Positions 5,439-58,191 of a stretch of DNA of 64,000 bases are shown here, one piece after another; the first letter of the stretch is position 1, and each line of letters opens with the position of its first letter. A program made the translations under genes and the position numbers. The stretch is taken from positions 47,180,721 through 47,244,720 of the forward strand of contig CM039462.1 of assembly GCA_022414725.1 (NCBI GenBank), in the 5' to 3' direction. The DNA comes from Microglena sp. YARC (taxonomy: Eukaryota; Chlorophyta; Chlorophyceae; Chlamydomonadales; Chlamydomonadaceae). Below the pieces are notes generated by a model. The model did no database searches and was not told where the DNA came from. It saw nothing but the letters and a program-made list of their open reading frames with translations.

Positions 5439-5519
5439 CTAGTGGGGGGCGTTGCCCAACATGCCAAGGACGTCACCAACCAAGTAGAGTGACCCCGTGA
5501 CAAGAACTTGGAGTTGCAC
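5439..5519 (-). CDS. FPGS: FPGS terminal exon (C-terminal VTGSLYLVGDVLGML motif)
   Basis: Acceptor TTCACACAG precedes 5519. The exon codes 26 residues beginning VQLQVLVTGSLYLVGDV and ends with TAG at 5439-5441. This matches the conserved last motif of FPGS. The frame needs a preceding exon that ends in phase 0, which I have not identified. Confidence 0.85.
   Translation of the reverse strand: MQLQVLVTGSLYLVGDVLGMLGNAPH

Positions 5520-58191: not shown

What the first reader, a model, noticed from the sequence alone, without database searches (positions are those of the whole stretch)
5439..58191. Systematic tandem duplication of exon edges into introns in two adjacent genes
At nearly every junction of FPGS and the CLASRP-like gene, the edge of the exon plus its splice site plus adjoining intron is repeated in tandem inside the intron. 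Donor-side copies follow the real exon; acceptor-side copies precede it. Examples: 12 copies after FPGS exon 6, about 16 after exon 8, 7 after exon 7, 5 before exon 2; in CLASRP 6 after exon 2, about 10 before exon 5, about 14 before exon 7, about 11 before exon 9. Full internal exons are not duplicated; only edges are. The introns thus seem to have grown inward from both splice sites by repeated duplication across the junction. Tandem duplication across an AGGT site is a known route of intron gain, but I do not know of a genome where exon-edge arrays are the general intron architecture.
Basis: partly seen in the sequence, partly recalled or inferred. Interest (0 to 1): 0.93.

Follow-up and report, generated by a model that had tools for sequence, protein, structure and literature searches.

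The report
Exon-edge repeat arrays fill algal introns
In this genome, likely that of a green alga, pieces of DNA that straddle the ends of exons are repeated in tandem inside the neighbouring introns of many of the genes examined; they likely arose by ordinary tandem duplication that selection tolerates only where the exon itself stays whole, and they would leave the splicing machinery to pick the true exon edge from many look-alikes.

Summary
In the two window genes (FPGS, minus strand; a CLASRP-like gene, plus strand) 27 of 46 exon edges have copies in the adjacent intron, against 1 of 46 in reversed introns and 2 of 1012 in other introns. It recurs elsewhere: 29 of 90 edges in 12 Cpn60/TCP-1 chaperonin genes, and 26 partial exon copies among 195 kinesin and dynein matches; all 23 classed as edge copies lie on the predicted side. 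No unit contains a whole exon: 0 of 54 arrays, about 6 expected. 'Nearly every junction' is too strong; 4 of 12 chaperonin genes have no array. Junctions are not hotspots by raw rate: random intron positions are repeated as often, and four random genome segments are 56-86% tandem repeat. With arrays collapsed, edge-touching families are in two-fold excess (35 of 55, expected 18), so junction bias stays open. Best reading: a genome-wide tandem-duplication regime filtered by selection on exons. The scale is unusual: 7 to 65 decoy edges per affected gene, the best one at least as strong as the real site in 41 of 54 arrays. cDNA is the missing test.

The parts
32542..32688 (-). FPGS exon 1 (start codon at 32688)
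   Evidence: letter for letter in P0001
30569..30634 (-). FPGS exon 2
30635..31484 (-). acceptor-edge array before FPGS exon 2, 5 copies
29143..29252 (-). FPGS exon 3
29255..30372 (-). acceptor-edge array before FPGS exon 3, 3 clear copies
28709..29142 (-). donor-edge copies after FPGS exon 3 (2-4)
28502..28620 (-). FPGS exon 4
26433..26590 (-). FPGS exon 5, one edge copy on each side
21218..21307 (-). FPGS exon 6 (skipped in P0001)
   Evidence: matches P0002
21308..26305 (-). array before FPGS exon 6: 5 copies of the exon edge (64 nt of exon each) running on into a 116-bp array
18810..21217 (-). donor-edge array after FPGS exon 6, 11-12 copies
18555..18662 (-). FPGS exon 7
18121..18554 (-). 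donor-edge array after FPGS exon 7, 6-7 copies
17086..17263 (-). FPGS exon 8 (3' part carries single-base differences that break the frame relative to P0001)
   Evidence: P0001
16374..17085 (-). donor-edge array after FPGS exon 8, 44-bp unit, 12-16 copies
12607..12764 (-). FPGS exon 9, approximate borders (no clean GT-AG ends; poorly assembled stretch)
11604..12603 (-). donor-edge array after FPGS exon 9, 4-5 copies
11088..11318 (-). FPGS exon 10 (frame broken at its 3' end relative to P0001)
8550..8640 (-). FPGS exon 11
5439..5519 (-). FPGS last exon, stop codon ends at 5439
4569..5301 (-). four matches to the end of the last exon, downstream of the stop codon
33202..33309 (+). CLASRP-like exon 1
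35275..35505 (+). CLASRP-like exon 2, one acceptor-edge copy at about 35005-35090
35506..36521 (+). donor-edge array after exon 2, 5-6 copies
36572..37023 (+). acceptor-edge copies before exon 3 (2)
37035..37230 (+). CLASRP-like exon 3
37231..40948 (+). donor-edge array after exon 3, 10-13 copies, with a long G-rich simple repeat between them
41427..41539 (+). CLASRP-like exon 4, two acceptor-edge copies upstream
41732..43471 (+). acceptor-edge array before exon 5, 10 copies
43472..43626 (+). CLASRP-like exon 5
44652..44891 (+). CLASRP-like exon 6
44892..45290 (+). donor-edge copies after exon 6 (2-3); end approximate
46989..47750 (+). acceptor-edge array before exon 7, 13 copies, about 56-bp unit
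47993..48133 (+). CLASRP-like exon 7
48821..48916 (+). CLASRP-like exon 8, one donor-edge copy at about 48917-48990
49322..50767 (+). acceptor-edge array before exon 9, 5-10 copies depending on the probe
50768..51077 (+). CLASRP-like exon 9, two donor-edge copies within about 51078-51390
53850..54005 (+). CLASRP-like exon 10
57095..57165 (+). CLASRP-like exon 11
57682..58133 (+). acceptor-edge copies before exon 12 (2)
58134..58191 (+). CLASRP-like last exon, stop at 58191

Best explanation
In this genome, likely that of a green alga, DNA segments that straddle exon ends are repeated in tandem inside the neighbouring introns of many of the genes examined, and these arrays likely arose by a genome-wide tandem-duplication process that selection tolerates only where the coding exon stays whole. 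Shown: the copies, their side rule, the absence of whole-exon units in the sample, mostly shared breakpoints within an array, and similar arrays in intron interiors, after a stop codon and in random genome segments. Inferred: each array began with one duplication of some tens to a few hundred bp that happened to cross a junction, then grew and shrank by slippage or unequal exchange. A unit that crosses one junction carries only one splice site, so the copy cannot be defined as an exon and is removed with the intron; a unit holding a whole exon would carry both sites, would likely enter the mRNA, and is lost. Introns thus lengthen by accumulating decoy exon edges that splicing is predicted to ignore because the real exon alone has a splice site at each end.
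For: Copies far above controls: 27/46 edges vs 1/46 and 2/1012; 29/90 vs 0/90 reversed, 0/66 wrong side, 4/1080 other genes. Side rule 23 of 23 edge copies, 3 further copies fit neither edge. No whole-exon unit in 54 arrays, 6.0 expected, P=1.7e-4 under uniform placement. Junction-centred probes repeated about as often as random intron positions: 24/46 vs 135/276 and 32/90 vs 162/352 (Fisher P 0.75 and 0.08). Coverage falls smoothly from the junction into the exon, to 0-5% by 100-120 nt, with no sharp peak at the junction. Stop-codon edge also copied. Families without exon sequence in the same genes: 43 internal vs 52 edge families. Random genome segments 56-86% tandem repeat with period >=20 (4 of 4). 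Copies look largely unconstrained: substitutions 0.138/0.123/0.168 by codon position, close to the intron part 0.160; 30 of 114 frameshifted. Exon breakpoint mostly common within arrays.
Against: With exons masked and arrays collapsed, edge-touching families are 35 of 55 against 18 expected (95% range 12-25), so a plain random-placement model fails unless ancestral introns were much shorter than the collapsed ones. Splice dinucleotides are kept in copies more than the same dinucleotides nearby (GT 90/105 vs 681/974, P=0.005; AG 65/74 vs 276/403, P=0.015); comparing copies only with each other the trend weakens (donor columns 0.927 vs 0.875 exon and 0.855 intron, P 0.09 and 0.07; acceptor 0.898 vs 0.889 and 0.791, P 0.36 and 0.055). 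Codon-position differences are small but significant (P=0.0005). Exon-interior probes are not free of copies (17/84 in the window; 16/330 in the chaperonin genes). Two 10-kb stretches beside the window have no tandem repeats, so the process is uneven along the genome. No RNA evidence from this organism was available.
Confidence: 0.68

Rival explanations
1. Junction-biased duplication: the tandem duplications start preferentially at exon-intron borders (for example from transcription- or splicing-linked DNA damage, or G-rich and GT-rich sequence at donors), so introns grow from their ends.
For: 35 of 55 families touch an edge against 18 expected in collapsed introns; repeated fraction near the edge (+40 to +60 nt) 0.36-0.50 vs 0.16-0.20 for collapsed deep intron; PMC3887541 reports more tandem repeats near intron-exon junctions in C. 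reinhardtii and V. carteri (abstract and passages).
Against: No sharp peak at the junction itself; junction positions not above random intron positions by raw rate; many families lie in intron interiors; the excess depends on an ancestral intron length that old decayed arrays may inflate.
Confidence: 0.2
2. The copies are kept by selection: arrays of decoy splice sites regulate splicing or supply alternative exon ends.
For: Donor GT retained in 90 of 105 copies and acceptor AG in 65 of 74, above the same dinucleotides nearby; in 41 of 54 arrays the best copy scores at least as high as the real site; gene models P0001 and P0121 read some copies as exons.
Against: The copies decay at near-intron rate and 30 of 114 are frameshifted; among copies alone the splice-site excess is not significant (P 0.07-0.09 for donors, 0.36 and 0.055 for acceptors); mean copy site strength is below the real site (P 0.009 and 0.001, though the scoring matrix was built from real sites and had helped to choose the chaperonin borders); the transcript-derived relative P0122 aligns end to end without added copies.
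Confidence: 0.08
3. Assembly artefact: reads of a repetitive region were stacked wrongly.
For: The window has local insertion-type errors at about 11-19 kb (frames of exons 8 and 10 broken relative to P0001).
Against: Over 54 arrays the copies are 63-94% identical to the real edge, unlike false duplications; the pattern is on four large contigs; P0001 keeps intact the frame that is broken here and still contains several translated array copies.
Confidence: 0.03

Closest known systems
Intronic tandem repeats / minisatellites of green algae (PMC3887541)
   Same: Tandem repeats densest in introns and more frequent near intron-exon junctions in C. reinhardtii and V. carteri (abstract and passages seen).
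   Different: That study counts repeat motifs; the passages I saw do not mention units made of exon edge plus splice site. Here edge arrays have a median spacing of 157.5 bp and occur in 10 of 14 genes sampled (both window genes and 8 of 12 chaperonin genes).
Intron gain by tandem genomic duplication across AGGT (review PMC3443670, passages seen; Hellsten 2011 and Gao and Lynch 2009 seen only in its reference list)
   Same: Tandem duplication that involves exon sequence and a splice site.
   Different: There the duplication creates a new intron between two copies of one segment. Here arrays sit at one edge of an intron; 2 of 55 families touch both ends (inferred).
Introners / introner-like elements (PMC9860276, PMC4457414: search listing only)
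   Same: Lineage-wide process that shapes introns.
   Different: Introners are copies of one element in many genes. Here copies are specific to one junction: 2 of 1012 and 4 of 1080 tests in other introns.
Tandem whole-exon duplication and mutually exclusive exons (recalled)
   Same: Tandem copies of exon sequence within a gene.
   Different: No array in the sample contains a whole exon (0 of 54).

Membership tests
Minisatellite (tandem array with units of tens to hundreds of bp) | Head-to-tail copies with a regular period | tested here: met
   Tandem Repeats Finder; unit spacing median 157.5, range 44-647 over 54 edge arrays, some of them with a single copy
Minisatellite (tandem array with units of tens to hundreds of bp) | Copy number varies between individuals | not testable with these tools
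   one assembly only
Intron gain by tandem genomic duplication | Both ends of the intron derive from one duplicated exonic segment | tested here: not met
   2 of 55 families touch both ends (19 + 18 edge contacts among 35 edge-touching families); the sequence of those two was not examined further
Intron gain by tandem genomic duplication | The intron is absent in close relatives | not tested
   no gene structures of relatives were at hand
Introner | Near-identical copies in introns of many unrelated genes | tested here: not met
   2 of 1012 and 4 of 1080 edge probes match other introns
Tandem exon duplication | Copy contains the whole exon with both splice sites | tested here: not met
   0 of 54 arrays; 0 of 121 copies in the window
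Splicing-regulatory decoy array | Splice sites in copies under selection | tested here: inconclusive
   excess relative to the real site, not significant among copies alone
Splicing-regulatory decoy array | Copies used or bound in RNA | not testable with these tools
   no RNA data

The most novel reading that the evidence does not exclude
This lineage has an intron architecture in which introns grow mainly from their two ends by junction-biased tandem duplication, so that genes carry up to dozens of near-perfect decoy exon edges and the spliceosome identifies exons by having a site at each end, not by splice-site strength.
Probability: 0.25. Interest if true: 0.85.

Novelty: new variant of a known kind. 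Interest (0 to 1): 0.64.

Why it matters
Splice-site choice among near-identical sites is usually studied with a few engineered decoys (general knowledge). Here a genome would, by extrapolation from the genes sampled, supply thousands of natural ones, each with a matched real site, so exon definition could be tested directly from RNA. It also gives a measurable route by which introns lengthen (about half of mean intron length in the 53 introns measured), and a warning for annotation: a public gene model of what appears to be this species reads four array copies as extra exons.

Tried and rejected
Strict inward growth: similarity to the real edge falls only weakly with distance, so I did not adopt it. 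Intron-specific arrays: I first thought arrays were confined to introns because two adjacent 10-kb stretches have no tandem repeats, but four random segments are full of them; whether those segments are themselves intronic was not determined. Junction hotspot by raw rate: rejected, then partly reopened with collapsed introns. Selection on splice sites in copies: suggested, weakened by the copy-only test. Gene-model frames were wrong for CLASRP from exon 9 on (exon 8 end) and for some FPGS exons and were corrected before the codon test. A direct comparison of P0121 with P0122 gave only short matches. Paper searches found no description of exon-edge arrays as a general intron architecture (open-access library only, and I judged most papers by title and start of abstract).

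Rows dropped: of 76 Cpn60 matches 57 were used, in 12 loci; 15 intronless, fragmentary or isolated matches were left out, and 4 matches inside the loci (two judged to be copies, two short or overlapping pieces; one of these, in gene G8, probably belongs to the preceding exon, so that one donor edge of G8 is likely misplaced and counts as 'no copy'). Of 45 chaperonin introns 15 miss an exon in between (marked); they stayed and were left out. By three of the 12 genes have no copy, by the unit analysis four; the difference is one weak match in G10. The kinesin search scored 122 of 325 candidates, so its counts are lower bounds; all 128 kinesin and 67 dynein rows printed went into. The HSP70 table and the Cpn60 table were not tallied that way. 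FPGS exons 9 and 11b have uncertain borders and stayed in the edge counts; the codon test left both out. Chaperonin exon borders are predictions from profile matches plus a splice-site matrix trained on the window's own sites.

Full report
What was checked. The window lies at G000:C1:47180721-47244720 of a 568-Mb genome in 2390 contigs. A joined FPGS reading matches green-algal FPGS (63% over 61% of the query to Chlamydomonas eustigma). P0001, a EukProt protein (gene1558), contains 8 of the 11 framed FPGS exons letter for letter (the last one counted by eye without its stop); it skips exon 6, and exons 8 and 10 match it only in part because the window's frame breaks near their ends. It therefore appears to come from the same species. 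The CLASRP-like gene carries the DRY_EERY domain (PF09750, 82.9 bits) and matches P0121 (gene1560; 6 of 12 exons letter for letter) and the C. eustigma homologue (38%). I take the organism to be a chlamydomonadalean green alga; this is inference from protein similarity. FPGS runs on the minus strand from 32688 to 5439, CLASRP on the plus strand from 33202 to 58191.

The copies are real. Exon-edge 36-mers find copies in their own adjacent intron at 27 of 46 edges, against 1 of 46 with the intron reversed and 2 of 1012 in other introns (Fisher P about 5e-39 against the latter). 121 aligned copies cross the junction; their exon part is 14-98 nt and none holds 95% or more of the exon. The claim 'nearly every junction' is too strong.

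It is not two odd genes. In 12 Cpn60/TCP-1 chaperonin genes on C1-C5, 29 of 90 edges have copies (reversed 0 of 90, wrong-side introns 0 of 66, other genes 4 of 1080, exon-middle probes 16 of 330). Four of the 12 genes have no edge array in the unit analysis, three. In the kinesin and dynein profile searches (128 and 67 matches listed), 26 matches are shorter copies of a neighbouring exon: 14 share its start and all lie upstream, 9 share its end and all lie downstream, 3 are neither. The affected genes of both kinds lie on contigs C1, C2, C3 and C5. Copies per affected gene number 65 and 55 in the window genes, 29 and 17 in two chaperonin genes and 7-10 in six others.

Exon choice. P0122, a transcript-derived protein (MMETSP source, organism not shown), aligns to the CLASRP model from end to end (1-624 on 1-605, 47%) with little room for extra copies. 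In contrast P0121 reads four copies of the exon-5 edge as extra exons and lacks exons 1-3, 7, 11 and 12, and P0001 skips exon 6 and translates array copies. These two are gene models, not cDNA; they show that annotation fails here.

Is the junction special? By raw rate no: junction-centred 40-mers are repeated in 24 of 46 and 32 of 90 cases, random intron positions in 135 of 276 and 162 of 352 (P 0.75 and 0.08). The profile rises from 0-5% at 100-120 nt inside the exon to 34-57% at 10 nt from the edge and stays roughly level into the intron (30-50% and 31-42%). The stop-codon edge of FPGS is copied too, which needs no splicing explanation. However, raw sampling over-weights long arrays. With exons masked and each array collapsed to one unit, 35 of 55 families touch an edge, against 18 (12-25) expected by random placement. 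This excess could mean junction bias, or that the unarrayed rest of the introns is itself old decayed array and ancestral introns were shorter (C. reinhardtii median 229 bp, PMC8226300 passages). I leave this open. PMC3887541 reports tandem repeats concentrated near junctions in two other green algae (abstract and passages).

Where arrays occur. Edge families cover 38% and internal families 17% of intron bases in the 14 genes. By Tandem Repeats Finder (period >=20) two 10-kb neighbours of the window have none, chaperonin gene flanks 12%, chaperonin introns 38%, and four random 4-kb segments 56-86%. Tandem repeats are therefore widespread but uneven in this genome; whether the four random segments are introns was not determined.

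Why only edges. Over 54 edge arrays with 214 copies, none contains a whole exon, while 6.0 would if the unit were placed uniformly over the junction (P(none) 1.7e-4; unit taken as median spacing). The filter is easy to understand (inference): a unit across one junction carries one splice site and is discarded with the intron; a unit with a whole exon carries two and would enter the mRNA. The side rule follows by definition in part, because the real exon is the copy joined to the rest of the exon.

State of the copies. Substitutions relative to the real exon are 0.138, 0.123 and 0.168 at codon positions 1-3 (P=0.0005), close to the intron part (0.160), and 30 of 114 copies are frameshifted: mostly unconstrained. 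Copies keep GT in 90 of 105 and AG in 65 of 74 cases, more than the same dinucleotides nearby (681 of 974 and 276 of 403; P 0.005 and 0.015), but real splice sites cannot drift, which biases this test. Among copies only, donor columns are 0.927 conserved against 0.875 (exon) and 0.855 (intron), P 0.09 and 0.07 over 13 arrays; acceptor columns 0.898 against 0.889 and 0.791, P 0.36 and 0.055 over 9 arrays. Copy sites are on average weaker than the real site (5.75 vs 7.51 and 5.12 vs 7.63 bits; the matrix was built from real sites and had helped to choose chaperonin borders), yet the best copy equals or beats the real one in 21 of 26 donor and 20 of 28 acceptor arrays. Consensus strength alone cannot tell the real edge from the decoys.

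How arrays grow. Exon-side breakpoints within an array mostly agree (median SD 9 nt against 24 nt between arrays; 7 of 22 arrays have 15-33 nt), so each array likely goes back to one founding duplication that was then amplified. Similarity falls slightly with distance from the exon (mean rho -0.19, 24 arrays, P=0.008). In 53 introns without a missing exon, removing detected arrays reduces mean length from 1607 to 843 nt.

Limits. No RNA, no reads, no second strain. The window has insertion-type errors near 11-19 kb. Chaperonin exon borders are predicted. The statement beyond the window rests on 12 genes at DNA level and on two profile searches at protein level.

Noticed in passing
window 11000-19000: Frames of FPGS exons 8 and 10 are broken near their ends by what look like single-base insertions relative to P0001, exon 9 has no clean ends, and the TGGTGC and 44-bp arrays show scattered one-base indels; likely unpolished long-read errors.
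   Followed up: partly
window 60556-63900: Long open frames with CCHC-type motifs (CWNCGGYGHTSIIC, CTICTGFGHTAFYC), probably a retroelement gag-like region; motif naming is recalled, no family search was run.
   Followed up: no
window about 29300-29500 (-) and 10040-10210 (+): By eye, two inverted copies of a dispersed element with tRNA-like A and B box sequence, possibly a tRNA-derived SINE (recalled motif).
   Followed up: no
window 4150, 9125, 16089, 16127, 16291, 19091, 19691, 20380, 20731, 31842, 33653, 51408-51702, 59107: A dispersed motif CAGTCCAGGGGTAGGCC has 16 matches with up to 3 mismatches against 0.35 expected, on both strands; four of them lie in the exon-6 donor array, so that array's unit may include the end of a dispersed element.
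   Followed up: partly
window 52630-53530 and 54885-55780: By eye, two diverged copies of a stretch of about 900 bp, one in the intron before CLASRP exon 10 and one in the intron before exon 11; related 28-bp arrays at 51881-52082 and 53541-53733 lie in the former.
   Followed up: no
public proteins P0001 and P0121 (EukProt gene1558, gene1560): Gene models of what appears to be this species translate array copies as exons (four in P0121), so its predicted proteome likely contains more such errors.
   Followed up: partly
C3:11606017-11606801: In the HSP70 table two short matches (465-496) lie upstream of an exon match (466-530) on the minus strand, another acceptor-edge array by eye.
   Followed up: no
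window 8659-8708, 41140-41340, 53090-53120: Very long G or C homopolymers (up to about 50 nt) inside introns.
   Followed up: no
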